This document shows positions 1-50,130 of a stretch of 64,000 nt of DNA, one piece after another. Below the pieces are notes generated by a model, which saw only the letters and a program-made list of their open reading frames with translations, had not been told where the DNA came from and made no database searches. This stretch comes from Acholoe squamosa. Its lineage: Eukaryota > Annelida > Polychaeta > Phyllodocida > Polynoidae. The stretch is taken from positions 15,553,282-15,617,281 of the forward strand of contig OX439039.1 of NCBI GenBank assembly GCA_949317995.1. Direction: 5' to 3'. Every line of letters begins with the position of its first letter. Position 1 is the first letter of the stretch. A program made the position numbers and the translations under genes.

Positions 1-1613
1 TCCTGTACCGGGAAAAATTTTTGAAAGGTTAATACACAATGCAATCTCCCAGCATCTAACTACTAACTCAATATTAACTGAACGCCAAGGAGGATACCAG
101 AAAGACAAATCTACTACTGACTCCATAAGTTTCTTTGTAAATGATGTATTAAGAAATAGAAATATAGGATATATTACCTTAGCTGCATTTATTGATATCA
201 AAAAGGCTTTTGACTCGGTTAATTATTTGATATTACTAGAAAAACTAGAACGCTATGGTATAAGGAGAAAAAACTTGGAATTAATTAGAAATTACTTAAC
301 GAATAGGAAACAATGCACCATGGCAAATAATATTAAGTCAGCAGAATTACCCCTGACCTGTGGAGTACCCCAAGGATCAATTTTGGGTCCCTTATTTTTC
401 TTACTATATATCAATGACTGCATACAACAGGATGATATACATAAAACAATGTTATATGCTGATGATAGTGTACTATATGTGTCTGGACCCAGTATTGATA
501 TATTAGAGACAACTCTACAACATGCATTAAACAAATTCATAACTTGGGCGAATAAAAACAAATTAACTATCAATGAGGGTAAAACTAAAATTATGACCTT
601 TTCCTCAGCCCAAACTCTCAAAAACCTACGTAGACCTAACATAGAAATAAATGGAACAGCGCTATTGTGTGTAAATTCTTATAAATACTTAGGGGTACTG
701 ATAGACCAGGAAATGAATTTTAATCTACATGTAAAGACTTTAATGAAAAATGTTCGCTACAAATCATTCCTATTATACAAAATAAGACATATGCTATCAC
801 ATACAGTGCTCCTACATGTATACAAAACCTATGTATTACCAATAATCGATTATGCTGATATTTTCTATGATACTGCCAATGGAACTTTACTTGATGAACT
901 CCAACGACTGCAAAACAAATGTATTAAAACATGCCTTGGTTTGAATATTTTAACATCAACAGATAGAGTTCATCATGTAGCAAATCTGCCTAAACTTATA
1001 TATAGAAGACAATACCATTGTAAGATGTTTGCACACAAAATGGTATTAATGTTAGAGTTGCAAATAGACAAACTCACCTACACGATGCTCCTGTACTTTT
1101 CTATAGTAATATAAATTGTAAAGCCTATGAAAAAGGTCCAGAAGTAAAATGTGCACAATTGTGGAATACCCTACCTACAAATACTAGAAATATAAGAGAA
1201 ATAGGTACTTTCAAAAACCTGATGAAATTGGATTTAATGGATTCCATCCCATGAAAAGAAATATGTAGAATTCTTATCTATATATGGTCAATTATATTGA
1301 TGCAACATTATGATTGTGACTAGAAATAATAATTTCTTTTTAAATACACTTATCTATTGTTTAAACACAATTATATACACCGCCATGTACCAAAACTCAA
1401 AGTCAAACTATTCTCAGGAATCTATATATATGTAACGTTACATACCATGGGGAGAGGCATAATAATATCTTTTGATACGCCTCGACCCAGGAACATATTG
1501 GTCTTCATATACGTGTATTTTGTACAATTTAATTCTGTATTATCTGCTCGTTGACTCATATGTCTATGACCAATAAAGTTCAAAGTTGTTCAAAAAAAAA
1601 AAAAAAAAAAAAA
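1..1613 (+). mobile_element. LINE copy A (Jockey/CR1-like non-LTR retrotransposon), 3' part, cut by window edge
   Basis: The window opens inside the reverse-transcriptase ORF of a non-LTR retrotransposon. It is followed by about 480 bp of 3' UTR, an AATAAA-like signal near 1571 and a 22-nt A tract (1592-1613). The same 3' end occurs reversed at 31733, so the end of the family is well defined by two independent copies. The 5' part lies outside the window, so length class and target duplication cannot be judged. The A tail abuts the last exon of the minus-strand gene to its right. Family placement (Jockey superfamily; CR1/L2/Crack-like) rests on RT motifs only. Confidence 0.9.
2..1114 (+). CDS. 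LINE reverse transcriptase, C-terminal part (partial, frameshifted end)
   Basis: This is the partial RNA-directed DNA polymerase of LINE copy A, open from base 2. Visible RT blocks include a fingers motif around KSTTDS, the AFIDIKKAFDSV block carrying the first catalytic Asp, the VPQGSILGPLFF block, the catalytic YADD box (MLYADDSVLY) and the thumb-side YKYLGVLID block. The enzyme would copy its own RNA at a nicked target (target-primed reverse transcription). Compared with copy B, the frame breaks shortly after position 1040: copy B continues for more than 50 residues with LINE-like sequence, while here the reading diverges and stops. This copy is therefore probably inactive. Confidence 0.85.
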   Translation, partial: PVPGKIFERLIHNAISQHLTTNSILTERQGGYQKDKSTTDSISFFVNDVLRNRNIGYITLAAFIDIKKAFDSVNYLILLEKLERYGIRRKNLELIRNYLTNRKQCTMANNIKSAELPLTCGVPQGSILGPLFFLLYINDCIQQDDIHKTMLYADDSVLYVSGPSIDILETTLQHALNKFITWANKNKLTINEGKTKIMTFSSAQTLKNLRRPNIEINGTALLCVNSYKYLGVLIDQEMNFNLHVKTLMKNVRYKSFLLYKIRHMLSHTVLLHVYKTYVLPIIDYADIFYDTANGTLLDELQRLQNKCIKTCLGLNILTSTDRVHHVANLPKLIYRRQYHCKMFAHKMVLMLELQIDKLTYTMLLYFSIVI

Positions 1614-9829: not shown

Positions 9830-10207
9830 TGTAGCGTTTTCCGACTCTATGGTTAATAAAGAATTACACAACTCCGACAGCTTGACTTCAGTGTCTTTTA
9901 TTTCCTGGCAGTCTTCGCCACACCATCTAAGTCTTGTATCGTATATAGATTAACCCGGAGGTAAGCCTTTGAAGTTCTGCTCTTCTCTGTCTGCAACCCG
10001 AAACTAACTGATCGGAGTAACAACTCCCTTATATATACATAGGCAGATACTCCAACCCCGGCCTGCTCCACGGCAGGCCAGCGTCGGAGGATCTCCTCCG
10101 CCGACTACTATTGCCGACGTAACCGCGTTACTTCAGGACCGCTGGCCTCGCCGCCCCCACACCAGGATGGTTTCGGCTCCGCCAACGGCCCCTCCGTCTC
10201 CGCCACA
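9830..10207 (-). repeat. 3' LTR of the gypsy element
   Basis: 378 bp with TG...CA ends (on the minus strand TGTGGCGG...CGCTACA). On the minus strand it contains a TATA box (TATATATAAGG, near 10029-10038) and an AATAAA signal near 9897-9902, in the order expected for U3-R-U5. It differs from the other LTR at three sites (an A/G in the CAACCCGRAAC run, one in ACTCCRACC, one in GCGTCRGAGG). Confidence 0.96.
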
Positions 10208-10217
10208 CTCTCCCCAA
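10208..10217 (-). promoter_or_regulatory. Polypurine tract of the gypsy element
   Basis: The minus strand reads TTGGGGAGAG immediately before the 3' LTR (TGTGG). This is the expected plus-strand primer. The second gypsy fragment at 45083 has the same tract, so it is conserved in the family. Confidence 0.85.
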
Positions 10218-10526
10218 CTAATCTATAGCCTTACCGGGAGAAAGAGTGTGATATTACCCTCCTGCAGATGGGTTTCCAATTTTGAAAAATCCTGTCACGC
10301 CATGGCCCCTGGGCGTTTAAGTAAATAGCTACACATATCATACACATAGTAAATCCTACTTAAACCTCCTCTATAGGCGGCATTAACTACTAAGTAAACC
10401 GAATCCGCCGTCCCCTATGCGGAGTATAGCCATAACAACAACTTTTATACAATAATACGGCGTCAGTTCGTCTGGATCCGGCAGACATCCTCCGCCTCCC
10501 CCTTCTCCGCCGCCCTCCGGATCGCC

Positions 10527-11717
10527 TCAGGATGTCTTGTCGCCGCCCTCGTTGGTTCCAGCCTTGGTCGTCCGCGCCGCCAACGTCCTCGGCCACCGCT
10601 GTCCGCAGCGGCTGCAGCATCCCTTCTTATCACGGCCATAACGGGTCCGGGTAACATGGACCAGTTCAATATCTCCATTGGGGAGGGTGTGAATGGAGGA
10701 AGATTGCAGTCCCCCGGGTATAACCCTCATCTCAGGTCCTAGGGTCCGAGGCTGCCCCAGTCGTCTAGAGTGTTCCTTGAGGGCCTCCGGCCCGGTAAAA
10801 TCCGAATGCCATGGCATAGCCCCATCCTCCTCCGCCTCCTCGTCCCTATTGTCACCCGCTTTATCTCCTTGTTGATCTAGCGGTAGGCGGTGCACCTCCT
10901 CTACCCCCACCAACCCCTCGGTGCTGGCGATTCCCCCTTCTCCCATATCTCCTATAGGTAATCCGGCTACTACCATCACTCGGTCTGTCTCAGTGTTGGG
11001 TAGGGGCGCCGGGTCCCCAAGCCCTCCGACCACCGTCTCAACCCCCTCCGGCACCATTACCATGGTCTCCGCCCGTCCACTCTCACCCCCCACTTCTACT
11101 TGCAGCAAGAATTCTCCCTTGGGCGAGCAAAGGACTAGCCCGTCCAACCCCACAGTCACGGTTCGGGGGTACTTGTCCAACCTGGGTAGAGCCACTAAGG
11201 TCCCCGGCTCTACGGGGGGGGGGGTCTTTGGTACCTTCTCCACCTGTCCTTTCTCCTTCACCGGTGTCCCTACGGAACCCGATTGAAATTTGCTCATTAC
11301 TTGGGCGGTACCCTCCTCCATGGATCGGTTTTGTATGGCCTCTTCCTCCGCTTCTTTTAACACTCCCTCCAGGCTCAACTTCCTCGTAGACTTTCCCGCT
11401 CCTTTTTCTTTAGGGCTTTTACTTTTAGTCTCCATCTCTTTCCTCAGTCTTTCTTTCTCCGCCTCTTTGGCCTTCCTCTCCTCCTCCTCCTTTCTCCACT
11501 GTTCCTCCTCCGCCCTCCGGCGCTCCTCAGCCTCTCTGGCCTTCCTCTCCGCCTCCTCTCTCTCTTTCCGTTTAATTTCTCTTTTCCTCTTCCGCTCCTC
11601 CTCCTTGGCATCGCTGAGTACAGCTAAGAACTGGGCTTTCAGTTTAGGGCAGGATTGGACGTACGCCGGGATGGCCACCTCCTCCGACTCCTCGCTGGTT
11701 TCATCCTCCCCTTCCAC
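10527..11717 (-). CDS. Extra gene (ORF3), C-terminal part: long charged coiled coil
   Basis: After GEDETSEESEEVAIPAYVQ and CPKLKAQFLAVL comes about 100 residues of almost uninterrupted Glu/Arg/Lys/Ala heptads (EEERKRKREIKRKEREEAER and following), a strong coiled coil. A Gly/Val/Pro-rich region of ~200 residues follows, and a final HVTRTRYGRDKKGCCSRCG with a CxxC pair. Together with the two preceding ORFs it would form one protein of roughly 1100 residues. Coiled coil plus zinc fingers suggests an oligomeric nucleic-acid-binding accessory protein. No enzymatic motif is visible. Confidence 0.65.
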   Translation of the reverse strand: MEGEDETSEESEEVAIPAYVQSCPKLKAQFLAVLSDAKEEERKRKREIKRKEREEAERKAREAEERRRAEEEQWRKEEEERKAKEAEKERLRKEMETKSKSPKEKGAGKSTRKLSLEGVLKEAEEEAIQNRSMEEGTAQVMSKFQSGSVGTPVKEKGQVEKVPKTPPPVEPGTLVALPRLDKYPRTVTVGLDGLVLCSPKGEFLLQVEVGGESGRAETMVMVPEGVETVVGGLGDPAPLPNTETDRVMVVAGLPIGDMGEGGIASTEGLVGVEEVHRLPLDQQGDKAGDNRDEEAEEDGAMPWHSDFTGPEALKEHSRRLGQPRTLGPEMRVIPGGLQSSSIHTLPNGDIELVHVTRTRYGRDKKGCCSRCGQRWPRTLAARTTKAGTNEGGDKTS

Positions 11718-12217
11718 CTCCTCCGCCTCGTCACCCCCCCCACCCCCTCCACCTCATCCTTCTCCGGCAACTCAGGCGTCACGATTGTAACTGTCTTCAG
11801 GATGGGTTTCGGTTTGTTAGGGGACGGTTTACTCATATCCTCATAGGAGGGCAACGTCTCGGGGCTGGCCCCGGAGAGAGTGGGTTTGGGCTTGTTGACT
11901 AGTTCGTAAGGGGGCTGCTTCTCGGGGCTAGAGTCCAGCCCATTTCCCCCTAGTCCCAAGCTCTCTCCGTCCTCCCCACTCGTGGCGGAGATGTCCTCGT
12001 AGGCAGCCGACTTGATGGAGGTTCGGGAGGTCGGAGTGTCCTTCCTGGTTTCCTCGTATTCTGCCTCCAGGGCCCTCACATTGACCTCCCCTAGAGGCAC
12101 CTCCCGTTGCATTCGTAACAGAGTCTTGGTGGGGGTCTCCCCCGACTGTCCATATCTCTCTACCAGCAATCCTATGACGAACTTCAGCTTCCCCGCCATT
12201 TCTTCGTCTATTTCCAC
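11639..12217 (-). CDS. Extra gene (ORF3), middle part, conserved in the second gypsy copy
   Basis: It starts EIDEEMAGKLKFVIGLLVERYGQ and continues GETPTKTLLRMQREV with a Glu-rich helical stretch, then GLDSSPEKQPPYEL. The fragment at 45771-46142 encodes the aligned sequence (DKKLRFVLNRIMEKFGE, GETPTKMLNRLQRDL, GLDSSPDKPAPYQL). Two diverged copies thus keep the same frame, which is good evidence that it is coding. It is entered from the zinc-finger ORF through a G8 run (+1) and left through a second G8 run near 11734-11741 (-1). The last ~35 residues here are out of frame. Confidence 0.7.
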   Translation of the reverse strand: MEIDEEMAGKLKFVIGLLVERYGQSGETPTKTLLRMQREVPLGEVNVRALEAEYEETRKDTPTSRTSIKSAAYEDISATSGEDGESLGLGGNGLDSSPEKQPPYELVNKPKPTLSGASPETLPSYEDMSKPSPNKPKPILKTVTIVTPELPEKDEVEGVGGVTRRRRWKGRMKPARSRRRWPSRRTSNPALN

Positions 12218-13673
12218 CTCCCCCCCCGCTCAGTAGAGGTGTCAGGTCGGGTATCCCCGTGGTCAGTGGCGGGGTGGAGGGTCCCGCTTCCTCCTCCGCC
12301 TGCCGCTCCTTACCCCGTGGGGATTGTCTCTTCCTCTTTTCCACCGATTCCTCCCCCTCCTCCGGCTCGAAGGCCCTTTTGACCCCCTTTCCTGACGTAC
12401 TCCGGGTGGACCTGACGGAGAGACAGCTCTGGGGGGTGCTGGTCCCCTCCACGCGGAATCCCAGCAATTGTTCCAAGTATTTGGAGGCGACAGCAGCCTC
12501 CGTCTCCTCCTCCAACGTTATCCCCGGCGACGCCATGCCGCTGAAGGTAGATCCACTGGGGCTGTCCCCCGCACCCCTTCCACCCGCCGAGGTGCCCTGC
12601 TGCGGCGGGGGGACCCCGGGCTTGGAGGCGGCTTTTACTGGTTTCTTTTTCTTGGCCAGCGCACTCCCCCTCTTCCTCTTTGTGGTGGTGGACTTGACAG
12701 TTTCCTCCGGGCTAGTTGGGGCGGCCACGAGGCTACTGTCCGCCGAGGATCCTCCCGCCTCCGTTGCCCGGCCCACCGGTAGCATCCTGCACTCCTCCGG
12801 CGGCTGCCAGTCCTCCAGCTCGGGGTGAATACGCGTAATGTGTCGCCGGAGATCATCTACCCGGATCTTGGCGACCATGTACTCACACTTAGGGCACTGG
12901 TAGCCCTCTTGCATCTCGTCGTGAGTGCTGAGATGGTGGTTCATCCCATCGGATCTCATGAAGTACCACTGCTTGGAGTCCCCCCTTTTCCGGCAGATCT
13001 CGCACCGATACTTCGGCAGCTCCACCCCGTCCACCCACTCCGTGGGGACAGGCTTCTGGTCTCTGTTTTTGAAGACAGGCATTACTAGTTGTGGCGTTGT
13101 CCATAGGCTAACAGGAATTGAAGGATGAGGCGGATAACGCTCCCTTATATTCCCCCCCGTGGTCACGCCCCCTCCTCCTCCTCCTCCAATCACCGTCCCC
13201 TGGGTCAGGCCACCCTCCGTCACCACGCGGTGGGAAACCCCCGGTTGCATCATAGCCCTACTCCGCACACTGTTGTCGCCAGTGGCGCCTCCGCTCTCAC
13301 GTGGCCGCTGTGAACCGTGGGAACGCGATCCGCGGTCAGCCGAGGACCTCCGCCTACGATAGCTCCCACTCCGACTCCGGCTCTCCGAGTCCCTTCTCCA
13401 ATATCTGGCTGCCTCCGTCCGGACAGACACTCCGTCCCTTCTGTGGCCACTAGTGGAGCGGCTAGAGGAGGAGTGGCCGGAGAATCTTTCTTTCTCCCTC
13501 CTCCTCCGCCGACTCTCCCTGTGTTTTGAGCGTGTGGGGCCCTCCCAGGAGTGGCTGGACACTGTAGAAGACACTTTCTTTGACCCTCCACCAGCATCTT
13601 TGCCTCGACTCGATTCACCCTCGGGCCCTGTCCCTCTTAGAACCACCAACCGTGTGTCATCTCCGGCCCGCAT
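11928..13673 (-). CDS. Extra gene (ORF3), N-terminal part: RS-rich region and two C2H2-like zinc fingers
   Basis: This gene lies downstream of pol, where envelope genes sit in some elements, but has no signal peptide or membrane segment. Residues 50-140 are Arg/Ser-rich (SR-like). Two zinc fingers follow: C224-x2-C227 with H246/H247 and H251, and C260-x2-C263-x14-H278-x4-H283. Then come a basic KRKRGSALAKKKK stretch and low-complexity sequence. True coding probably ends in the G8 run near 12228-12235; beyond it the protein continues in the +1 frame as the next ORF, and the remaining residues to 11928 are out of frame. The likely role is nucleic-acid binding or nuclear targeting; the family is unknown to me. 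Confidence 0.7.
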   Translation of the reverse strand: MRAGDDTRLVVLRGTGPEGESSRGKDAGGGSKKVSSTVSSHSWEGPTRSKHRESRRRRREKERFSGHSSSSRSTSGHRRDGVSVRTEAARYWRRDSESRSRSGSYRRRRSSADRGSRSHGSQRPRESGGATGDNSVRSRAMMQPGVSHRVVTEGGLTQGTVIGGGGGGGVTTGGNIRERYPPHPSIPVSLWTTPQLVMPVFKNRDQKPVPTEWVDGVELPKYRCEICRKRGDSKQWYFMRSDGMNHHLSTHDEMQEGYQCPKCEYMVAKIRVDDLRRHITRIHPELEDWQPPEECRMLPVGRATEAGGSSADSSLVAAPTSPEETVKSTTTKRKRGSALAKKKKPVKAASKPGVPPPQQGTSAGGRGAGDSPSGSTFSGMASPGITLEEETEAAVASKYLEQLLGFRVEGTSTPQSCLSVRSTRSTSGKGVKRAFEPEEGEESVEKRKRQSPRGKERQAEEEAGPSTPPLTTGIPDLTPLLSGGGGGNRRRNGGEAEVRHRIAGREIWTVGGDPHQDSVTNATGGASRGGQCEGPGGRIRGNQEGHSDLPNLHQVGCLRGHLRHEWGGRRELGTRGKWAGL

Positions 13674-13725
13674 TGTAGATTGACCGTTAACGGCCCTTCC
13701 CCCGCCTTTTATTGGGGAGACCTTG

Positions 13726-14601
13726 TTATGAGGGTTGCTTAGCGACTCCCGCCTCTCCGGCCCTACTCCGCTTCTCTCTGATTCTCCTCCGGCCAGGATC
13801 CGCCGCCCTCCTTAGTCTTTCTGCCCTGATTTCCTTGTTTTGGCCATGGTTCCGCCTTCTGCGGGCCAACTCACTCTCATCACTCACCCCCTCTCCATCC
13901 GACTCGCCCATCTCGGGGAGGGACCATTCCTCGTAGGGAGGGTCCTCCTCTGGTTCTACCCCCCTCCAATGTGACATTTCAGCTTCTTTCTTCGACCTTC
14001 TTTCCTTTTCCAGCCATACATCGCACCAGTCACGGCTTTCTTGACTCATCTTGCTTTTGCAGCTCCTCCACTCCGCCCCAAGGTAAGTATCCAGTTGAGG
14101 CGCCAGTCTGACGGCCCGGGCTACGCTGGTTCCGGCAGGCTTCGGTGCACTCCTCCGCAGACCTTCTTTCCGATTTCCTTTATCCGCTGCCCCTCCCTTA
14201 CTGTTTTCCATTATTTGATGTCTCTGTTTCTCTTTGCAGGTCAGCAGTTTCGCCTCCAGGTCAGCTCTAGTCTCCGAGGTCACCTGAACCAGCCGGATGG
14301 TGCCCCCTCCGGATCCTTCTCCCTCCTCGTCTGAATTGTCAGAAGATAGGGGCTCGGCCTCCCTTGTTTCATCTTCCACGGGAACATCCTCCGCCGTGGC
14401 CCGCGCCGGGGCCAATTTTAGGGCGTCGTAATGGACTACCCTGGTAGTTTTACCCTTTTTGATTTTATACACCGCCTCCCCTACGCGCCCCACTATCTCC
14501 CATGGGCCTGTCCAATAGCTCTGGAGTTTAGGTGTCAGGCCCCTCTTCCGGAGAGGGTGGTAGTAGAAGACCCTGCCCCCGACAGGGAATTCGCCTGCCA
14601 T
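13726..14601 (-). CDS. Integrase C-terminal (GPY/F-like) domain plus long charged extension
   Basis: The first ~65 residues are the missing end of the integrase: GGRVFYYHPLRKRGLTPKL, then YWTGPWEIVGRVGEAVYKI and RVVHYDALKLAPAR. This matches the GPY/F-type C-terminal domain of gypsy integrases, which binds DNA. It joins the pol frame by a -1 shift inside the 67-bp overlap, so I read it as one protein broken by an indel. About 225 further residues are Glu/Arg/Lys-rich without a domain that I recognise, including an SHWRGVEPEEDPPYEEWSLP segment. This tail is long for a gypsy integrase. Confidence 0.8.
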   Translation of the reverse strand: MAGEFPVGGRVFYYHPLRKRGLTPKLQSYWTGPWEIVGRVGEAVYKIKKGKTTRVVHYDALKLAPARATAEDVPVEDETREAEPLSSDNSDEEGEGSGGGTIRLVQVTSETRADLEAKLLTCKEKQRHQIMENSKGGAADKGNRKEGLRRSAPKPAGTSVARAVRLAPQLDTYLGAEWRSCKSKMSQESRDWCDVWLEKERRSKKEAEMSHWRGVEPEEDPPYEEWSLPEMGESDGEGVSDESELARRRRNHGQNKEIRAERLRRAADPGRRRIREKRSRAGEAGVAKQPS

Positions 14602-17288
14602 GCTCTCGCGTCATAGTTCCTCTGTTGCCTGCAGAGGGACCTTCCGAGGGCCTCCCTAGCGACGGAGTATGCTTTTGCCATGGTAGTTTGTAATTCGGCC
14701 ACATAACCGACCCCTCCCCCAACATTGGGCTCCAGTGGGTAAACCAAATCCAGGGGAATGCCTGTTTTCCGCCCCAACATCAGAATATTGGGGGACAACC
14801 CCGTGGAGGCGTGTGCAGAGGAGCGATACGCCGCCATCACAAATGGCAGTCGCCGGTCCCAGTCCCGTTGGTCCTCCGCCACCACGGTCGCCAGCAGCAT
14901 TTCAATCGTTCTGTTGGCCCGCTCCACCATCCCATCGCTTTGGGGCCTAAAGGAACAGGTCCTGGTCTGCCTGACTTCCAGTAAGGCCACCATTTCCCTG
15001 AACAGTCCCGACTGGAAGTTCTTGCCCTGATCTGTGTGCACCTCCACCGGAGCTCCAAATCTACAGATGAACTCCTCCACCACAGCCCTGGCCACCGTGG
15101 GTGCCTCCTGGTTGGGTAAAGCGTACGCTTCCGTCCATTTAGTGAAGTAGTCCGCCGCCACCAAAATATATTGGTTCCCGGCGGAGGACAAGGGCAATGG
15201 ACCCATCACGTCTAGAGCCATCCTCTGTAGGGGTAGTCCAGCACCCACGTGTCCCATTGGTGCCCGATGCGGAGGTGGAGCCGCCTTCCTCCGGACGCAA
15301 GGTTCACAGCTGGCGCACCACAGGGTCACATCCCTCCTGAAGTCCGGCCAGTAGTAACCTGTCTGGAGGCGCCGGATGGTTTTATTGCGGCCCAGATGCC
15401 CCGCCAAGGGTTCTCCGTGGACCTCCCGGAGCACATCATTCCTGCTCCGGGCGGGTACAGCAATTTGGAAACATCGTTCCCCCGCCGCGCCTTCCCACCA
15501 CCGGCCCAGTATCCCTTTTTCAATACTCATGCGCCCCAATTGGGCATGCCAGGCCCTCAGCTCATAGCCCCAGGTCCGTCTTTCCTCCTCTGTGGTGGTC
15601 GCCTCCCCGTTCACCCATGCTCTGACCCGAGTCAGCACAGTGTCCTCCGCTTGGAGCGTGCCCCACTCTCTCCCTGCCGGCGGAGTGGAGTCCTCCGCCG
15701 CCGGAGGCGCCCCCCGAACCATCTCCTGGCATTGAGACCTTGTGAAAACCCGGCAATGCAGCAGCTCCTCCTCATCCTCTCGTCCACATTGCTTGCAGGG
15801 CTTCCTGGACAGCCCATCCGCATTTCCATGTAGTTTCCCCGGCCTATGCTGCACCACTATGTCGTAAGTACTTATAATCTGCAGCCATCGAGCCAGCTGG
15901 CCCTCCGGCTCCTTGAACTCCAACAGCCACCGCAGGGAGGCATGATCTGTCCGGACTACCACCCTCCTCCCTATTAGGTAATGCTTGAATTTCCTGAGGC
16001 CAAAGACTATAGCCAGCAGCTCCCTCCTTGTAACGCAATAGTTACGCTCCGGCCTGCTGAGAGTGCGGCTGCCATAGGCTAGGACCCTCTCTACCCCCGT
16101 CTGCTCCTGGGACAGTACCACTCTGAGGCCTGTGTCACTGGCGTCGGTGTCTAAGGTAAGCTGTCCCTCCGCCTGGGGAAAAGCTAGGATAGGGGCCTCG
16201 GTTAATCTTCTTTTTAGGTCTTGGAATGATGCCTCGCATTCCTCCGACCACCGGAACGTCCTCCCTTTCTCGGCCAGCGCACTCAGTGGTTTAGCCCTCG
16301 TAGAGAACTCGGGAACGAAGGTCCTGTAGTAGCCAGCTAGCCCCAGAAAACTCCGGACCTCCGTCACCGTGGTCGGAGTGGGCCACGACTGCACCGCCGC
16401 TATCTTTTCCGGATCTGTCTCTACTCCCGCCTCACTCACTTGGTGGCCCAGGAATAACACTCTGCGGCGAGCCAACTGGCATTTGGAGGGCTTGATTTTA
16501 AGTCCAGCATCCTCTAGCCTTTGAAGTACCTCCCCAAGCCGCTCCATATGTTCCTCGAAGGTGGCGGAGAATACGACTATGTCGTCTAGATAGACCAAAC
16601 AAGTTTTCCACTGTAGTCCCCTCATGGCCACTTCCATCACCCTCTCGAAGGTGCCTGGCGCATTGCACAAACCGAAGGGCATTCTCCGAAATTGGAACAG
16701 CCCCCGGTGTGTCGTGAATGCTGTCTTCTCTTTATCCCCCTCCTCTATATCCAACTGCCAGTAGCCGCTGGCCAGATCCACTGACGAAAACCAAGCGGCC
16801 CCCGCCATGGTATCGAGACAATCTTCCACTCTAGGTAGGGGATAAGCATCCTTCACGGTGGCGGCGTTGAGCCTCCGGTAGTCCACACAGAAGCGAGTGG
16901 TACCATCTTTTTTTCTTACTAGGACCACCGGAGAAGCCCACGGGCTAGTGGATGGCTCGATCACTCCGGCTTCCAACATCTTCTCCACCTCCTCTTCTAC
17001 AGCCTCTCGTCTATGGGGTGCCAATCGTCTCGGCGGTTGTTTGATAGGTGGATGTACCCCCGTATCAATCCTATGCTTGGCCAATTGAGTGTGCCCTTTG
17101 TCGCCCTTATGCCTCTGAAATGCCCCCAGGTGTTTCCTTATAAGCCGTGCAAGCTCCTTCCTACGGTGAGCCTTCGTCCCGCTCACTAGCCCGTCCACCA
17201 AGCTCTTTAGCTCCTCCCGCTCACCTCTCTCCACCACCCGGCACCATCCCTCTCCGGCCGTTGCCTCGCCTCCGCCTCTGCACTCCAC
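14535..17288 (-). CDS. pol: Pol: reverse transcriptase, RNase H and integrase core
   Basis: About 915 residues. RT: Asp171 in SSVDLASGYWQ and YLDD at 233-236. RNase H: TDAS at about 381-384, with a GLRVVLSQ sequence where GLGAVL is usual. Integrase: the HHCC zinc site at about H624, H631, C658 and C661 or C664, then the DDE triad D693, D753 and E789 with exactly 35 residues between the last two. It copies the RNA to DNA and integrates it. The domain order RT-RH-INT is that of Ty3/gypsy. The reading leaves the integrase near residue 905 (RNYDARAW) and ends in out-of-frame sequence, while the missing C-terminal domain continues in the -1 frame. One base therefore seems lost near 14590-14605. 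Confidence 0.95.
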   Translation of the reverse strand: MECRGGGEATAGEGWCRVVERGEREELKSLVDGLVSGTKAHRRKELARLIRKHLGAFQRHKGDKGHTQLAKHRIDTGVHPPIKQPPRRLAPHRREAVEEEVEKMLEAGVIEPSTSPWASPVVLVRKKDGTTRFCVDYRRLNAATVKDAYPLPRVEDCLDTMAGAAWFSSVDLASGYWQLDIEEGDKEKTAFTTHRGLFQFRRMPFGLCNAPGTFERVMEVAMRGLQWKTCLVYLDDIVVFSATFEEHMERLGEVLQRLEDAGLKIKPSKCQLARRRVLFLGHQVSEAGVETDPEKIAAVQSWPTPTTVTEVRSFLGLAGYYRTFVPEFSTRAKPLSALAEKGRTFRWSEECEASFQDLKRRLTEAPILAFPQAEGQLTLDTDASDTGLRVVLSQEQTGVERVLAYGSRTLSRPERNYCVTRRELLAIVFGLRKFKHYLIGRRVVVRTDHASLRWLLEFKEPEGQLARWLQIISTYDIVVQHRPGKLHGNADGLSRKPCKQCGREDEEELLHCRVFTRSQCQEMVRGAPPAAEDSTPPAGREWGTLQAEDTVLTRVRAWVNGEATTTEEERRTWGYELRAWHAQLGRMSIEKGILGRWWEGAAGERCFQIAVPARSRNDVLREVHGEPLAGHLGRNKTIRRLQTGYYWPDFRRDVTLWCASCEPCVRRKAAPPPHRAPMGHVGAGLPLQRMALDVMGPLPLSSAGNQYILVAADYFTKWTEAYALPNQEAPTVARAVVEEFICRFGAPVEVHTDQGKNFQSGLFREMVALLEVRQTRTCSFRPQSDGMVERANRTIEMLLATVVAEDQRDWDRRLPFVMAAYRSSAHASTGLSPNILMLGRKTGIPLDLVYPLEPNVGGGVGYVAELQTTMAKAYSVAREALGRSLCRQQRNYDARAWQANSLSGAGSSTTTLSGRGA

Positions 17289-18081
17289 TCGTTGAATGGC
17301 CCCGAGAGTCTTTATATATCACCACTGGCTCAGGACCGGGATTGAGCACCCTGACCCAAGTTGCCCTCCCCTTGGGGCACACCAGCCCCCGCCCCACCAG
17401 GAAACTCGGTTCACCTTTGTGTCCGGCCATCCCTTCAATCATCCCGTCGTCCCCTTGTTGCCAGGGTCCGACTAGAGTTCCCTCTAGCATGGCCTTCTGT
17501 CCGGATCCCAGCACCGCCGCCTGGGTGCTGACGATTCGGCATACAGAATCCTCCTCTGTCCACACTAGGCGCCCTTTTGCTACGTCGACCATTAGTTTGT
17601 TGGTGCGGAGGAACTCCGCCCCCAGGATTCCCTCCGTCCCGGTGTCGCTGACTACGAAACGCACATTGATAGTACGCCTCCCGATTTCCAGCTCTGTGTA
17701 CACTTCCCCTTTTATGTCCATAGGCCGCCCATCGACGGAGTAGATCTTCTCTGCCGTTTCCCCCAGGCGTTCCCGTCCGCCCCACCTGCTCCACCATCCT
17801 TCGGAGACCAGATTAAGCGACGCACCAGTGTCCATCAGCAATTGGATGGGGGCCCCTGCCAGCCGACCCTCTACTATCAATCCTCCTCCGCCCCTCTCTC
17901 GGCGGCCCTGTATCACATTGATAGGCCCACTTCCCTCGACCTGTACTTGGCCTTTAGTATAGGTCGATTCTAGTTTCCCGCCGCCGGAGTAGCCTGTTCG
18001 CTCACCGGCTTGGATGCCTCCTTGGCCTTGATATTTGGGCATTCTCGCTTGAAATGGCCTTCCTGTCCGCATCCGAAGCAA
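17221..18081 (-). CDS. Retroviral-type aspartic protease region (pro)
   Basis: The protease core is clear: the active-site loop LLMDTGASLNLV, a flap-side segment, then EGILGAEFLRTNKLMVD, the usual second half of pepsin-like retropepsins. It would cleave Gag and Pol as a dimer. The ORF overlaps gag by at least 110 bp in the -1 frame and overlaps the RT ORF by 68 bp in a +1 relation, so pol lies again in the gag frame. Many gypsy elements keep protease and RT in one frame, so the second shift may be an indel in this copy. The true N-terminus is set by frameshifting or processing, not by the first start codon. Confidence 0.85.
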   Translation of the reverse strand: MLRMRTGRPFQARMPKYQGQGGIQAGERTGYSGGGKLESTYTKGQVQVEGSGPINVIQGRRERGGGGLIVEGRLAGAPIQLLMDTGASLNLVSEGWWSRWGGRERLGETAEKIYSVDGRPMDIKGEVYTELEIGRRTINVRFVVSDTGTEGILGAEFLRTNKLMVDVAKGRLVWTEEDSVCRIVSTQAAVLGSGQKAMLEGTLVGPWQQGDDGMIEGMAGHKGEPSFLVGRGLVCPKGRATWVRVLNPGPEPVVIYKDSRGHSTSGVQRRRRGNGRRGMVPGGGER

Positions 18082-19019
18082 GCACCATTGCTTGGCTTTT
18101 TCTTCCTCCCCACTGCCGCCGGATCATCCAGCCTTTGAACTAACCGCTCCATCAACTCCGCCATTTTGCTCATTTCCTCTTTATTGGACTTTAGGTGTTC
18201 ATTTACTGACGCATCCGCCGCCCGCACTTTGTGGATATTCTCCTGCTCCACTTTTAGGTACGCCTCCGCTCCCACCGCCGTCATTACTGCGGATTGTAAA
18301 TCTTTCGGCGTTGACTGATACACCCACTGCCTGAGTGGATTGTCGAGGCACAATAGGAATCTGTCGAGAGCTAAGGTGTCTGTCGTCCGGGCGTCCGCCT
18401 CCGGATATGCTAACTTAGTGTACTTTTTCAGTTCTTCTTGTAACTCTTGCAGTCCCTCTCCCTTTCGCCGGACCCTAGTGCGGAGGAACGCTTTGTAGAT
18501 CTCTTCCTGATTAGTAGGCTCAAACCTTTCCACGAGTGCCCTTCTCAACTCCTCATACCCCTCCGGCGTGGCTGGTTTCCTTCCCGTCAACAATCTCCGG
18601 GCTGCCCCTGACAGACTCAGGCCTAGGAACATACCCGCCTCCTCCGGCTTCCATCCATTCACTTTGACGCACAGGTCGAAGTGGTTGAGGTAGTCAGATA
18701 GGTCTGTGGTGCCATCATATTTAGAGGGTTTCACCACTGGCTTACCCTTTGCCTCCTTCTCCCCATCGGCACCTCCTCTCCAGCCGCTCTCCGGACGACC
18801 CACAACTCCTCTACCCTGCCGGGGATCTCCACCTTCCCCCTTTTCGTCCTTATCCGCCTCCTCCGCACATTTCCCGGTTTCGGGGCGAACCTCGGACGGT
18901 GCCCGCTTGCTCCCCTTCCCTGGGTTATTCACCTCCGCCTGCTCCTCCGGCCACCAAAGCACCTTTCCGCCATCGTCCCTTCCCGGGTTGAACCCCAGCC
19001 AGGCATCTGCATCACCCAT
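17970..19019 (-). CDS. gag: Gag polyprotein
   Basis: 349 residues. The first ~95 are charged and low in complexity. A retrotransposon gag/capsid-like region follows, with the typical PSKYDGTTDLSDYLNHFD block and FEPTNQEEIYKAFLRTR. A CCHC zinc knuckle (CFGCGQEGHFKREC; C-x2-C-x4-H-x4-C) sits near the C-terminus, about residues 318-331. Gag would form the cytoplasmic virus-like particle and bind the element RNA. The start is the ATG following the TAA of the leader ORF. The 3' end overlaps the protease ORF in the -1 frame, so a -1 frameshift within or upstream of the knuckle could make Gag-Pro. A G-rich/A-rich stretch (GGAAGAAAAAG) lies in that overlap but is not a canonical slippery heptamer. 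Confidence 0.9.
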   Translation of the reverse strand: MGDADAWLGFNPGRDDGGKVLWWPEEQAEVNNPGKGSKRAPSEVRPETGKCAEEADKDEKGEGGDPRQGRGVVGRPESGWRGGADGEKEAKGKPVVKPSKYDGTTDLSDYLNHFDLCVKVNGWKPEEAGMFLGLSLSGAARRLLTGRKPATPEGYEELRRALVERFEPTNQEEIYKAFLRTRVRRKGEGLQELQEELKKYTKLAYPEADARTTDTLALDRFLLCLDNPLRQWVYQSTPKDLQSAVMTAVGAEAYLKVEQENIHKVRAADASVNEHLKSNKEEMSKMAELMERLVQRLDDPAAVGRKKKPSNGACFGCGQEGHFKRECPNIKAKEASKPVSEQATPAAGN

Positions 19020-19025
19020 TTTTCC

Positions 19026-19349
19026 TTAAGGGTGCCTCAGCCTTCGGGCCGCCGGTTTCTCCTCCCTCTCCCATGGCCACAGGTAGGGCTCCCTTTCTTT
19101 AACGCGTGGTTCCTCATACCCCGCCTCCGGCACCTCCTCCCGGGGTGCTCTATCGGCGGGTTCTGCTTGTCTCTCCGGGTTCATCTCTTCCGGCCTCACC
19201 ACCCCTCTCTGCCGTAGCATCACTTCCTCGTCCACCACTTCCAGCAGAACCCCTTTTTCCCGCTTAATCTCCTCCGCATTCCTCTTCTCCACAGGTAAGT
19301 TTATCGTTTCTGAAGCCTCCGCCATCTTTCTTCTCTCGTGAGTCTTCAA
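19026..19349 (-). CDS. Leader ORF in frame with gag, separated from it by one TAA
   Basis: A 107-residue charged ORF starts just inside the PBS and ends in TAA two codons before the gag ATG, in the gag reading frame. It could be an N-terminal extension of gag interrupted by one nonsense codon, a readthrough arrangement, or a short upstream ORF. The composition (Glu/Arg-rich, no clear domain) gives no function. Without a second full-length copy I cannot choose among these. Confidence 0.5.
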   Translation of the reverse strand: MKTHERRKMAEASETINLPVEKRNAEEIKREKGVLLEVVDEEVMLRQRGVVRPEEMNPERQAEPADRAPREEVPEAGYEEPRVKEREPYLWPWEREEKPAARRLRHP

Positions 19350-19364
19350 ACACCGCTGTCACCA
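19347..19364 (-). promoter_or_regulatory. Primer-binding site of the gypsy element
   Basis: One base inside the 5' LTR the minus strand reads TGGTGACAGCGGTGTTTG. It starts with the TGG complementary to a tRNA CCA end. I could not match it securely to a particular tRNA by eye. Confidence 0.75.
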
Positions 19365-19365
19365 A

Positions 19366-19740
19366 TGTAGCGTTTTCCGACTCTATGGTTAATAAAGAAT
19401 TACACAACTCCGACAGCTTGACTTCAGTGTCTTTTATTTCCTGGCAGTCTTCGCCACACCATCTAAGTCTTGTATCGTATATAGATTAACCCGGAGGTAA
19501 GCCTTTGAAGTTCTGCTCTTCTCTGTCTGCAACCCGGAACTAACTGATCGGAGTAACAACTCCCTTATATATACATAGGCAGATACTCCGACCCCGGCCT
19601 GCTCCACGGCAGGCCAGCGTCAGAGGATCTCCTCCGCCGACTACTATTGCCGACGTAACCGCGTTACTTCAGGACCGCTGGCCTCGCCGCCCCCACACCA
19701 GGATGGTTTCGGCTCCGCCAACGGCCCCTCCGTCTCCGCC

Positions 19741-19743
<3 letters not shown>
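19366..19743 (-). repeat. 5' LTR of the gypsy element (promoter LTR)
   Basis: 378 bp, matching the left LTR at 375 positions. For this minus-strand element it would drive transcription, with the TATA box near 19565-19574 and the poly(A) signal near 19433-19438. It is followed on the right by TA repeat. Confidence 0.96.
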
Positions 19744-30326: not shown

Positions 30327-30330
30327 CATG

Positions 30331-30550
30331 TGTAGAGGTCGGTGAAAATGTTCTTGGAGAAACCGGGACTCGAACCCGGGGCCCTCCAACTTCGAAGCGG
30401 CTGCTCTTCCTCTGAGCTACTTCCCCTGGCCTGACATTTCCACCTTCCATCCACACCTGGATCGGTATGATACACACTAGGGGGCAGTGATTACCCGGAG
30501 ACCCGCCCCTGGGGGTCTGCCACCGAGTACAGGGAATTACTGCCCCTACA
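30331..30550 (-). repeat. 3' LTR of the TRIM
   Basis: 220 bp, identical to the other LTR. Minus-strand ends are TGTAGGGG...CCTCTACA. It contains the tRNA-like sequence at 30356-30426. Confidence 0.95.
30356..30426 (-). ncRNA. tRNA-like sequence in the TRIM LTR (copy in 3' LTR)
   Basis: 71 nt that folds as a tRNA in most parts: acceptor GGGGAAG/TTTCTCC (7 pairs with two G-T), D stem GCTC/GAGC, T arm CCGGG-TTCGAGT-CCCGG. The A box (TAGCTCAGAGG) and B box (GGTTCGAGTCC) of a Pol III promoter are both intact. The anticodon stem pairs poorly, so this is not an ordinary tRNA gene. A TTTT run (30345-30348) a few bases downstream could end Pol III transcription. Confidence 0.85.
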
Positions 30551-30559
30551 CTCCTCCCC
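30551..30559 (-). promoter_or_regulatory. Polypurine tract of the TRIM
   Basis: The minus strand reads GGGGAGGAG directly before the 3' LTR TGTAGGGG. Confidence 0.85.
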
Positions 30560-30800
30560 ATCAGCTTCAACCACCATCCACCAGCACCAGGCATTCCCCC
30601 TCAAACCAGTTACCTGGAAATTGAGGCTTTATCAAGCAGAGTTAGGGCACTCCTGACTTCCCAGTGGATGTACCAGTACAATTACCGGATTGGTCGAAGC
30701 GTCATCTGTATCATATCGGCCCAGTTCCCGAGTCCTCAATCCATGATTGTGTTAAGACATGAGCAGGCACACATATCTTCAATCTGATTGTATTAGGATG

Positions 30801-30816
30801 CTCGGTTTCTCCACCA
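30801..30816 (-). promoter_or_regulatory. Primer-binding site of the TRIM, matching its own tRNA-like 3' end
   Basis: The minus strand reads TGGTGGAGAAACCGAG, one base from the 5' LTR. Its complement, CTCGGTTTCTCCACCA, equals the tRNA-like 3' end with CCA added (CCCGGTTTCTCCA plus CCA) at 15 of 16 positions, 14 of them contiguous. Confidence 0.88.
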
Positions 30817-30817
30817 C

Positions 30818-31037
30818 TGTAGAGGTCGGTGAAAATGTTCTTGGAGAAACCGGGACTCGAACCCGGGGCCCTCCAACTTCGAAGCGGCTGCTCTTCCTCT
30901 GAGCTACTTCCCCTGGCCTGACATTTCCACCTTCCATCCACACCTGGATCGGTATGATACACACTAGGGGGCAGTGATTACCCGGAGACCCGCCCCTGGG
31001 GGTCTGCCACCGAGTACAGGGAATTACTGCCCCTACA
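30818..31037 (-). repeat. 5' LTR of the TRIM
   Basis: 220 bp, identical to 30331-30550. It contains the tRNA-like sequence at 30843-30913 and is followed on the minus strand by the primer-binding site. Confidence 0.95.
30843..30913 (-). ncRNA. tRNA-like sequence in the TRIM LTR (copy in 5' LTR)
   Basis: Identical to the 30356-30426 copy, with the same A box, B box and downstream TTTT (30832-30835). A discriminator-like A follows the acceptor stem in the genome; CCA is not encoded. Confidence 0.85.
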
Positions 31038-31041
31038 CATG

Positions 31042-31732: not shown

Positions 31733-32096
31733 TTTTTTTTTGAACAACTTTGAACTTTATTGGTCGTAAACATATGAGTTGACAAGCAGTTGACAGAAAT
31801 ATACATAGTAATTTTGCAGAAATAAAGACCAGTAAGTTCATGGGTCGAGGCGTATCAAAAGATATTATTATGCCTCTCCCCATGGTATGTATCAAAGGCA
31901 TGTACTGATTCCAGAGAAAAGTTTGACATTTAGATATGGTACATGGCGGTATAATTGATTGTATTTAAATAGTAGCGAGTGTAAGAATTGTTATTAATGA
32001 TCATAATGTTGCATAGAGGTATAAGTTGATAACCATACATAAGATTTCATACATTTCTTTTTATGGGATAGTAACCATTAAATCAAGCTCTTCCTC

Positions 32097-32261
32097 TGAG
32101 CTATTTCCCTGGCCTGACATACCCTGTCACCAACACGGCCCCACTGACATTTCCACCTTCCACCTACCTCTGGATCGGTATGGTATACATAGGGGGAGTG
32201 ACCACCAAGTGAGCTGGCCTCTGGAGGCTCAACGCACCCGGGGAGGGAACGAACCCCTACA
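32097..32261 (-). mobile_element. Old TRIM-LTR fragment inside LINE copy B
   Basis: The minus strand starts TGTAGGGG like the TRIM LTR, shares GATCCAG-GTGGAAGGTGGAAATGTCAG words, and stops inside the tRNA-like part after AGCTCAGAGGAAGAGC (A box present, B box lost). A ~28-bp insertion lies between two GACAT words. LINE sequence is missing at the junction (about a dozen bases compared with copy A), so insertion came with, or was followed by, a deletion. Diverged, hence older than the complete TRIM nearby. Confidence 0.8.
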
Positions 32262-48640: not shown

Positions 48641-49214
48641 CACTAGGCAATGGGTACATTCTCACTTTTTCTAATTTGTTGTAAACAGGATTCAACTCAG
48701 CTGAGTCTCATGAAGTCCTGCTTCAAGACTAACTTTTTAAGAAACACTCAGTTGGGATTTATCCTCCTGATTCGTTGTCGTAAATGGTGGGGTGGCTCTT
48801 TGTTGTTACATTTTATATGAAGACTACATTATGATAGGGCGTGGAAAAGGAACCTATAGATGACACATGCCATAGTCTGCCTGCTATAGTCTGGCTTCAT
48901 GAGACATCATTGTTCACTATAGGCTTTCAGCAGTTGGCCGGGGTTCTGTAAATAGTCTAGTCATCTGGGATTTTGTCATGTGCCACGTGTTGACTCTCAT
49001 GGCCTTTCTTTGTAAATACCTACCCTGTAGTCAGCCTACTCTATTCTGTTTTGTTCTCAACCGATATAGAGCCTCGGTCTGAAGAGTATCCACATTGGCA
49101 ATTGTTAGGGTTGGCGAGGAAACACTCCTCTACTCATCTACTCGACGTTTGATTAGAGAACATGTGCTATGGGTACGAGGATGTTTTCAATATATTGAGG
49201 TATAACATAAACTG

Positions 49215-50130
49215 CTTTCCCATCTATTTTGCCTTAAGCATTGGTTCCACTGCCATTAGTCAGTTAATTTTTCGCTAATCCGACGATCTATAGATCGTAT
49301 TGAAAAAACTATAGGAAAACGGTTGGATTAGCACTTGTTTAATTTCACCCGACCAACGGCAGTGGAATTAGTGGTTTACAGCCCCCCCCTCCTCTATACT
49401 AACAGTTCCCCCAACATCTTGCCCAATGTTCCCCTTAAAGCTGTCCTGGTTCTCATCTAGAAGATGCCCTCATTTAATTCACTTTCCCACCTTGTGTATA
49501 CATCATCCAGCACACTTCCCTACAAACAACAGCTTCTACTGCATAATCTCCTAGCTCCCAACCTCTACGCTGCATTCCCTCTAAACCCATTTCCTTAACA
49601 TCCTATGAGATGTAGTGAGTGAAGCCCCTGTCCCAATGTATCAACCCTGCTGCAGGCTATCTGTATACATATTTATATCGCTTTCCCATCTATTTTGCCT
49701 CAAGCATTGGTTCCACTGCCATTAGTCAGTTAATTATTCTCTAATCCGAAGATCTATAGATCGTATTGAAAAAACTATAGGAAAACAGTTGGATTAGCAC
49801 TTGTTTAATTTCACCCGACCAACGGCAGTGGAATTAGTGGTTTACAGCCCCCCCCTCCTCTATACTAACAGTTCCCCCAAGATCTTGCCCATTGTTCCCC
49901 TTAAAGCTGTCCTGGTTCTCATCTAGAAGATGCCCTCATTTAATTCACTTTCCCACCTTGTGTATACATCATCCAGCACACTTCCCTACAAACAACAGCT
50001 TCTACTGCATAATCTCCTAGCTCCCAACCTCTACGCTGCATTCCCTCTAAACCCATTTCCTTAACATCCTATGAGATGTAGTGAGTGAAGCCCCTGTCCC
50101 CATGTATCAACCCTGCTGCAGGCTATGTAT
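49215..50130 (+). repeat. Tandem duplication, 466-bp offset, ~98% identical
   Basis: 49215-49680 repeats at 49681-50130 with only scattered single-base differences. Both contain the same fold-back (49245-49369 and 49711-49835). The second copy is followed by ~35 bp (GTATCGTTATATATCGAAAT...) missing after the first, and both are followed by CTGTATACATATTTATATCG. No coding. Confidence 0.95.
49245..49369. mobile_element. Small MITE-like fold-back (present twice through the tandem duplication)
   Basis: TTCCACTGCC...GCTAATCC on the left and GGATTAGC...GGCAGTGGAA on the right pair with short interruptions; the centre has CGATCTATAGATCG. The second copy is 466 bp further on. Confidence 0.8.

What the first reader, a model, noticed from the sequence alone, without database searches (positions are those of the whole stretch)
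30331..31037. A miniature LTR retrotransposon that seems to carry its own reverse-transcription primer
Each LTR holds a tRNA-like sequence with intact A and B boxes, good acceptor, D and T stems, and a TTTT run just downstream. The primer-binding site beside the 5' LTR is complementary to that sequence's own CCA-tailed 3' end at 15 of 16 positions, 14 contiguous. If the LTR RNA is made by Pol III, trimmed and given CCA like a tRNA, it could prime the element's own cDNA. Normally LTR elements borrow a host tRNA. The alternative is that the LTR tRNA-like part and the primer are both copies of the same host tRNA.
Basis: partly seen in the sequence, partly recalled or inferred. Interest (0 to 1): 0.92.

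Follow-up and report, generated by a model that had tools for sequence, protein, structure and literature searches.

The report
Miniature retrotransposon matching its own tRNA
A tiny, recently mobile jumping element carries a tRNA-like gene in both of its end repeats, and the site where its DNA copying should start is complementary to the tail of that same tRNA-like gene; a related family in the same genome differs at the matching base in both, so these elements may supply their own copying primer, although a normal host tRNA has not been ruled out.

Summary
A 707-bp element lies on the minus strand (31037-30331): identical 220-bp LTRs, 4-bp duplication CATG, PPT, and a PBS pairing with the CCA-tailed 3' end of the LTR's own tRNA-like at 15 of 16 positions. 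It is a Helenus-type TRIM, a published kind (PMC10886601). That paper reports no complementarity between LTR tRNA-like and PBS. Here it occurs in three LTR families of one genome. A (this one) and B (one locus): tRNA-like ends TTTCTCCA, PBS TGGTGGAGAAACCGAG. F, whose module is close to a full tRNA-Ala(TGC): ends TGTCTCCA, PBS TGGTGGAGACACCGAG in 20 of 22 copies with a readable PBS; one copy (L050) matches its own module 18 of 18. PBS position 10 and tRNA pair 6:67 differ together. Against: A, B and 20 of 22 F copies share a mismatch at position 15, as if the primer were a tRNA with T-stem CTCGG. The search for such a host tRNA did not complete. Self-supplied primer and a shared host tRNA-Ala source are about equally likely. 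New variant of a known kind.

The parts
30331..31037 (-). Helenus-type TRIM, family A, 707 bp, non-autonomous
   Evidence: 40 genome matches over 705-707 bases at 99-100% (40 of 2480 candidates scored)
30818..31037 (-). 5' LTR, 220 bp, TGTAG...CTACA
30331..30550 (-). 3' LTR, 220 bp, identical to the 5' LTR
30842..30913 (-). tRNA-like sequence in 5' LTR, 72 nt, Ala-like acceptor with G3:U70 (type by inference and recall), anticodon arm damaged
   Evidence: Rfam 47 bits, ARAGORN, fold (done on the identical 3' LTR copy)
30355..30426 (-). tRNA-like sequence in 3' LTR, identical
30896..30906 (-). A box TAGCTCAGAGG (5' LTR copy)
   Evidence: sequence; consensus recalled
30853..30863 (-). B box GGTTCGAGTCC (5' LTR copy)
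   Evidence: sequence; consensus recalled
30832..30835 (-). TTTT, possible Pol III terminator after the 5' LTR tRNA-like
30345..30348 (-). TTTT after the 3' LTR tRNA-like
30801..30816 (-). primer-binding site TGGTGGAGAAACCGAG
   Evidence: 15 of 16 to own tRNA-like+CCA; the script found the same 22-base PBS stretch in 47 rows of family A, some places counted twice
30551..30563 (-). polypurine tract TGATGGGGAGGAG next to the 3' LTR
   Evidence: sequence
30327..30330 (.). target-site duplication CATG, left
31038..31041 (.). target-site duplication CATG, right
32085..32261 (-). truncated LTR of a family F-like relative, ends just after the A box; an insertion in a LINE-type frame relative to the second copy at window 1-1600
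   Evidence: U3 wording as in L050

Best explanation
This is a Helenus-type TRIM, moved in trans by an unidentified LTR retrotransposon (Gypsy by analogy with PMC10886601). Shown: its LTR holds a tRNA-Ala-like sequence with Pol III boxes, paired acceptor, D and T stems and a downstream TTTT; its PBS is complementary to that sequence's CCA-tailed 3' end; in a related family PBS and LTR tRNA-like differ from these at the matching base. Inferred: LTR copies are transcribed by Pol III, ends are trimmed, CCA is added, and these family-made tRNAs, acting in trans and probably beside host tRNA-Ala, prime minus-strand DNA synthesis at the PBS. The TTTT may be leaky, so one promoter could give both a short primer RNA and a longer template RNA.
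For: 15/16 match in A. Between A and the one B locus, U3 is 74% identical (91 of 123 ungapped columns) and the interior past the PBS 11 of 31, but acceptor 14/14, D arm 17/17, T arm 16/16, discriminator 1/1 and PBS 16/16 are unchanged; the 4 differences in the tRNA-like fall in its anticodon and variable part (20/24). Family F has a near-complete tRNA-Ala(TGC) (ARAGORN, 6 copies in L050-L052; up to 68.8 bits) ending TGTCTCCA, and PBS TGGTGGAGACACCGAG in 20 of 22 readable copies; L050 matches its own module 18 of 18. Between F and A/B acceptor pair 6:67 is U.G versus A-U and PBS position 10 is C versus A. One locus (L041, flanked by CAAC) holds tRNA-like 3' end + CCA joined to the reverse complement of U5, the junction self-priming would leave.
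Against: PBS position 15 mismatches the tRNA-like in A, B and 20 of 22 readable F copies, and bases 17-18 also fail in A; one host tRNA with T-stem CTCGG would explain position 15. Predicted duplex energy is -26.6 kcal/mol for tRNA-like+CCA against -39.3 for a perfect 20-nt complement. Apart from the L041 junction, the script found no family A copy with a PBS changed to the self sequence, though Ty3/Ty1 inherit the PBS strictly (PMC7472051, section 13 read), so this weighs little. The covariation is one base of the PBS. No free host tRNA-Ala gene was read. The L041 junction also fits a deletion or template switch at an 11-14 base repeat. PMC10886601 found no such complementarity in its Helenus families.
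Confidence: 0.43

Rival explanations
1. Shared source: the primer is an ordinary host tRNA-Ala; the LTR module was captured from the same tRNA, perhaps by template switching onto the primer tRNA packaged with the element RNA, and serves only as a Pol III promoter. PBS and module look alike because both copy host tRNA-Ala isodecoders.
For: Position 15 mismatch common to A, B and 20 of 22 readable F copies. Modules that look like other tRNA types sit in the same LTR frame in families C, D, E, so modules have been exchanged. PMC10886601 reads Helenus modules as promoters primed by host tRNAs.
Against: Requires host tRNAs ending TTTCTCCA and TGTCTCCA, the first of which I cannot recall from animals (recall only). 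The 46 tRNA hits that I read, of 63 scored, all lay in family F LTRs and none was a free host gene, but host genes may have been crowded out. Does not by itself explain acceptor-stem conservation between A and B.
Confidence: 0.43
2. Coincidence: the tRNA-like is a promoter, and its type happens to equal the primer type in one lineage; A, B and F inherit one accident.
For: With some 40 tRNA types a match in one of many families is expected now and then (estimate); A, B and F share LTR ancestry.
Against: The matching difference at PBS position 10 and tRNA base 67 between F and A/B; roughly 3% by chance for a single change in each (my arithmetic).
Confidence: 0.08
3. Tf1-like priming in cis: the tRNA-like end in the 5' LTR of the element RNA folds onto the nearby PBS and is cut to give the primer; no CCA addition needed, because the TGG in the PBS templates it.
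For: The predicted fold of the RNA from tRNA-like to PBS forms 9 pairs between the tRNA-like 3' part and the PBS instead of the tRNA acceptor stem. Tf1/Tj1 self-priming is described in PMC4600332 (passages).
Against: TGG at the PBS start is kept in the three families, the mark of a CCA-tailed primer; alone, the tRNA-like folds as a tRNA acceptor, D and T arm.
Confidence: 0.06

Closest known systems
Helenus (TRIMp3), Kojima 2024, PMC10886601
   Same: Short LTR element under 1 kb, tRNA-like in LTRs with A and B boxes, PBS, PPT, 4-bp TSD as in animal Helenus, many young copies
   Different: Kojima states that no complementarity between LTR tRNA-like and PBS was found; here it is 15/16 in A and B, 15/16 or 14/16 in 20 F copies and 18/18 in one F copy; acceptor stem kept in A, B and F; the F module is close to a full tRNA
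Cassandra (5S RNA in LTR) and Ajax
   Same: Pol III gene-derived sequence inside TRIM LTRs
   Different: 5S rRNA, not tRNA (PMC10886601)
Tf1/Tj1 self-primed retrotransposons (PMC4600332, passages)
   Same: Primer comes from the element's own RNA
   Different: Primer is a 5' segment of the mRNA, not a tRNA-like RNA; further detail recalled
MLV vector rescued by an engineered tRNA-like primer (Lund 1997, seen only as a reference title in PMC3185771)
   Same: A supplied tRNA-like RNA primes an altered PBS in trans
   Different: Laboratory construct; here the pairing would be natural

Membership tests
Helenus TRIM | tRNA-derived sequence inside both LTRs | tested here: met
   47 bits in both LTRs
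Helenus TRIM | Length under about 1 kb, two LTRs with short interior | tested here: met
   707 bp, LTR 220, interior 267
Helenus TRIM | PBS and PPT at the ends of the interior | tested here: met
Helenus TRIM | 4-bp TSD (animal Helenus) | tested here: met
   CATG here; exact in 19 of 30 loci by simple test, not in 11
Helenus TRIM | Box A and box B conserved (TRGCY, YGG; GGTTC) | tested here: met
   TAGCT and GGTTC present; YGG reads AGG here
Helenus TRIM | No mobility proteins encoded | tested here: inconclusive
   one stop-to-stop frame of 124 aa overlaps the element; not run against protein families
Helenus TRIM | Similarity to a Repbase Helenus consensus | not testable with these tools
   supplements and Repbase not held
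Self-priming element (tRNA type) | PBS complementary to own tRNA-like | tested here: met
   15/16 in A and B; of 22 F copies 16 at 15/16, 4 at 14/16, L050 at 16/16, one other at 14/16
Self-priming element (tRNA type) | No host tRNA matches the PBS better | not tested
   pattern searches unanswered
Self-priming element (tRNA type) | CCA-tailed LTR RNA joined to cDNA | not testable with these tools
   no RNA data
Cassandra | 5S rRNA sequence in LTR | tested here: not met
   up to E = 1 the element matches tRNA and two weak unrelated families, no 5S rRNA

The most novel reading that the evidence does not exclude
A lineage of TRIMs that encodes its own reverse-transcription primer: a great many LTRs, probably thousands, express a CCA-tailed tRNA-Ala-like RNA, the PBS follows that RNA through evolution, and by replacing its LTR tRNA module the lineage can change primer without depending on the host tRNA set. 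In family F the same RNA may even be a chargeable tRNA-Ala.
Probability: 0.4. Interest if true: 0.92.

Novelty: new variant of a known kind. Interest (0 to 1): 0.7.

Why it matters
LTR retrotransposons and retroviruses as a rule borrow a host tRNA as primer. An LTR element that makes its own tRNA primer would break that dependence and give TRIMs a role as primer donors. It also stands against the one published statement on the matter that I found (no complementarity in Helenus, PMC10886601; searches) and would explain why these LTR modules keep their acceptor stems. It is directly testable with a host tRNA list and small-RNA reads.

Tried and rejected
Window Gypsy (9830-19743, minus) as partner: its PBS reads TGGTGACAGCGG, not ours, so rejected as partner by PBS. 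PBS-overwriting argument (every copy should show the true primer's bases; my notes still lean on it): dropped as strong evidence, because Ty1 and Ty3 inherit the PBS strictly (PMC7472051). TTTT scarcity in the element: not significant (mean 0.6 expected per 487-bp unit). Fold z-score of the tRNA-like is weak (-1.12); the covariance-model score carries the case. Host identity: a LINE frame search gave no source names in the 120 listed of 5969 hits. Paper search for PBS or primer letters gave 10 papers, judged from titles to be chance oligo matches, none opened. Bivalve TRIM paper PMC6934838 (passages): no canonical PBS there, so not a match. Sampling for host tRNAs: ARAGORN found none in 50 kb. 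Families C, D and E: only solo or decayed LTRs were read, so their PBSs are unknown. L041 as proof of self-priming: rejected as proof, since a deletion or template switch at the short repeat, with a nested insertion, fits too.

Full report
What is there. On the minus strand, 31037-30331, lies a 707-bp element: 220-bp LTR, a 267-bp interior that begins with one G and the PBS TGGTGGAGAAACCGAG and ends with a PPT, and a second 220-bp LTR, flanked by CATG. The LTRs are identical. Each holds a 72-nt tRNA-like (LTR bases 125-196) scoring 47.0 bits against Rfam tRNA, with acceptor, D and T stems formed and a poor anticodon stem. A TTTT begins at the seventh base after its end; the element has no other TTTT. 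With CCA added, the tRNA-like 3' end pairs with the PBS at 15 of 16 bases, 14 contiguous.

Young and numerous. The window's own assembly (1.48 Gb, unnamed) gave 2480 first-look candidates, 40 scored, yielding 44 matches: 40 over 705-707 query bases at 99-100% identity and 4 partial ones, one of them at 75%. Of 30 loci cut out, 26 matches are exactly 707 bp and 25 of these have identical LTRs; 19 of 30 loci show an exact 4-bp duplication by a simple test. In the loci held a script looking for LTR end + PBS found 47 rows with TGGTGGAGAAACCGAGCATCCT (45 with a G before it, one T, one A), 2 rows of family B, 2 of the L041 fold-back junction and 1 unrelated; some places are counted twice because L007/L042, L022/L043 and L025/L041 overlap.

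What it works like and what it is. It meets the marks of a Helenus TRIM that I could test, save coding capacity, which was not run against protein families (Kojima 2024, PMC10886601; I read parts 1-4 of 6 and the figure and table section). That paper considers priming by the LTR tRNA-like and rejects it, because it found no complementarity with the PBS. In the library held here, no other paper holding Helenus with LTR retrotransposon and tRNA, nor any other using TRIMp3 in this sense, was listed; 16 and 9 papers listed were judged by title and abstract except those named here.

Relatives in the same genome. Family B is one locus beside a copy on contig C12 (L022/L043). It differs from A in U3 (91 of 123 ungapped columns identical) and beyond the PBS (11 of 31), yet acceptor, D arm, T arm, discriminator (48 of 48) and PBS (16 of 16) are unchanged; the four tRNA-like differences lie in the anticodon and variable part. 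The RF00005 search was answered once (63 of 97417 candidates scored, 63 matches). I read 46 of the 63 matches; all 46 carry an LTR tail or a PBS within 35 bases and belong to another TRIM family, F; 17 were not read. The F module is close to a full tRNA-Ala(TGC) (6 copies called so by ARAGORN) and ends TGTCTCCA. Of the 46, 24 have no PBS after them (3' or solo LTRs) and 22 do: 20 read TGGTGGAGACACCGAG, one (L050) TGGTGGAGACACCGGGAT, 18 of 18 to its own module, and one (second LTR of L051) TGGTGGAGACACCTGG, 14 of 16. Against the own module the 20 score 15/16 (16 copies) or 14/16 (4 copies, whose own T stem differs). A and F: U3 82 of 123 ungapped columns, acceptor 12 of 14, D arm 15 of 17, T arm 15 of 16, anticodon part 12 of 23.

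Covariation. Between F and A/B the acceptor pair 6:67 is U.G versus A-U, and the PBS base facing tRNA base 67 is C versus A. One step in three places keeps both the stem and the PBS match. If PBS and module evolved independently, a single change in each would agree by chance about 3% of the time (my arithmetic, 1 in 11 positions times 1 in 3 letters). Recalled, not tested: common animal tRNA-Ala has GGGGATG/CATCTCC, so at bases 66 and 67 the PBSs follow the LTR version.

The other side. PBS position 15 is A in A, B and 20 of 22 readable F copies, opposite C62 of most modules. A host tRNA with T-stem CTCGG would pair there. PBS bases 17-18 differ between A (CA), B (TT) and most F (TG). Predicted pairing energy of the tRNA-like+CCA with the PBS is -26.6 kcal/mol, against -39.3 for a perfect 20-nt complement. 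The host-tRNA search that would settle this (pattern TCRANNCTCGGTKTCTCC and earlier forms) did not complete. In Ty1 and Ty3 the PBS is inherited strictly (PMC7472051, section 13), so in elements of that type a fixed mismatch does not by itself tell against the self primer.

Modules are exchangeable. LTRs of families C (L031 1716-1934, L046 4201-4420), D (L033) and E (L044) share the words before (TCAGG) and after (TTTT) the module, but carry modules that look like other tRNA types. The C module in L031 scores only 25.3 bits, below the Rfam cut-off; acceptor ends of C and E look unpaired by eye. Their PBSs were not found. This fits capture of new tRNA modules, and gives the next test.

A fold-back locus. 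L041 (contig C6), one 1675-bp unit flanked by CAAC, contains tRNA-like 3' end + CCA + reverse complement of U5 and LTR. Extension of the tRNA-like from the PBS would leave this junction; so would a switch or deletion at the shared 11-14 bases after a nested insertion. It shows that the two sequences were joined in the predicted register; it does not show how.

Verdict. Observation confirmed. Kind known, variant new. Self-supplied primer 0.43, shared host source 0.43, coincidence 0.08, cis priming 0.06.

Noticed in passing
L041 5175-6849 (C6): Composite TRIM with tRNA-like+CCA joined to reverse-complement LTR, and an LTR CA-end joined to interior base 427, inside one CAAC duplication.
   Followed up: partly
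L031 1716-1934, L046 4201-4420, L033 about 500-1158, L044 about 1440-1555: LTRs or LTR pieces with the same frame but different tRNA modules (families C, D, E); D has tandem repeats of about 22 bp in U3.
   Followed up: partly
L050-L092: Family F: 46 LTR-borne tRNA-Ala-like sequences read; such copies would inflate tRNA gene counts of this genome.
   Followed up: partly
window 9830-19743 (-): Gypsy-type element with 378-bp LTRs (99% alike) and long open frames; PBS TGGTGACAGCGG.
   Followed up: partly
window 32085-32261 (-): F-like LTR cut off just after its A box, within a LINE-type frame whose second copy (window 1-1600) lacks it.
   Followed up: partly
window 49214-50126: Two tandem copies of a 466-bp unit, 98% alike.
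   Followed up: no
L022 2214-3246: Family B copy with a nested partial LTR and interior, a tandem-like array with a deletion.
   Followed up: partly
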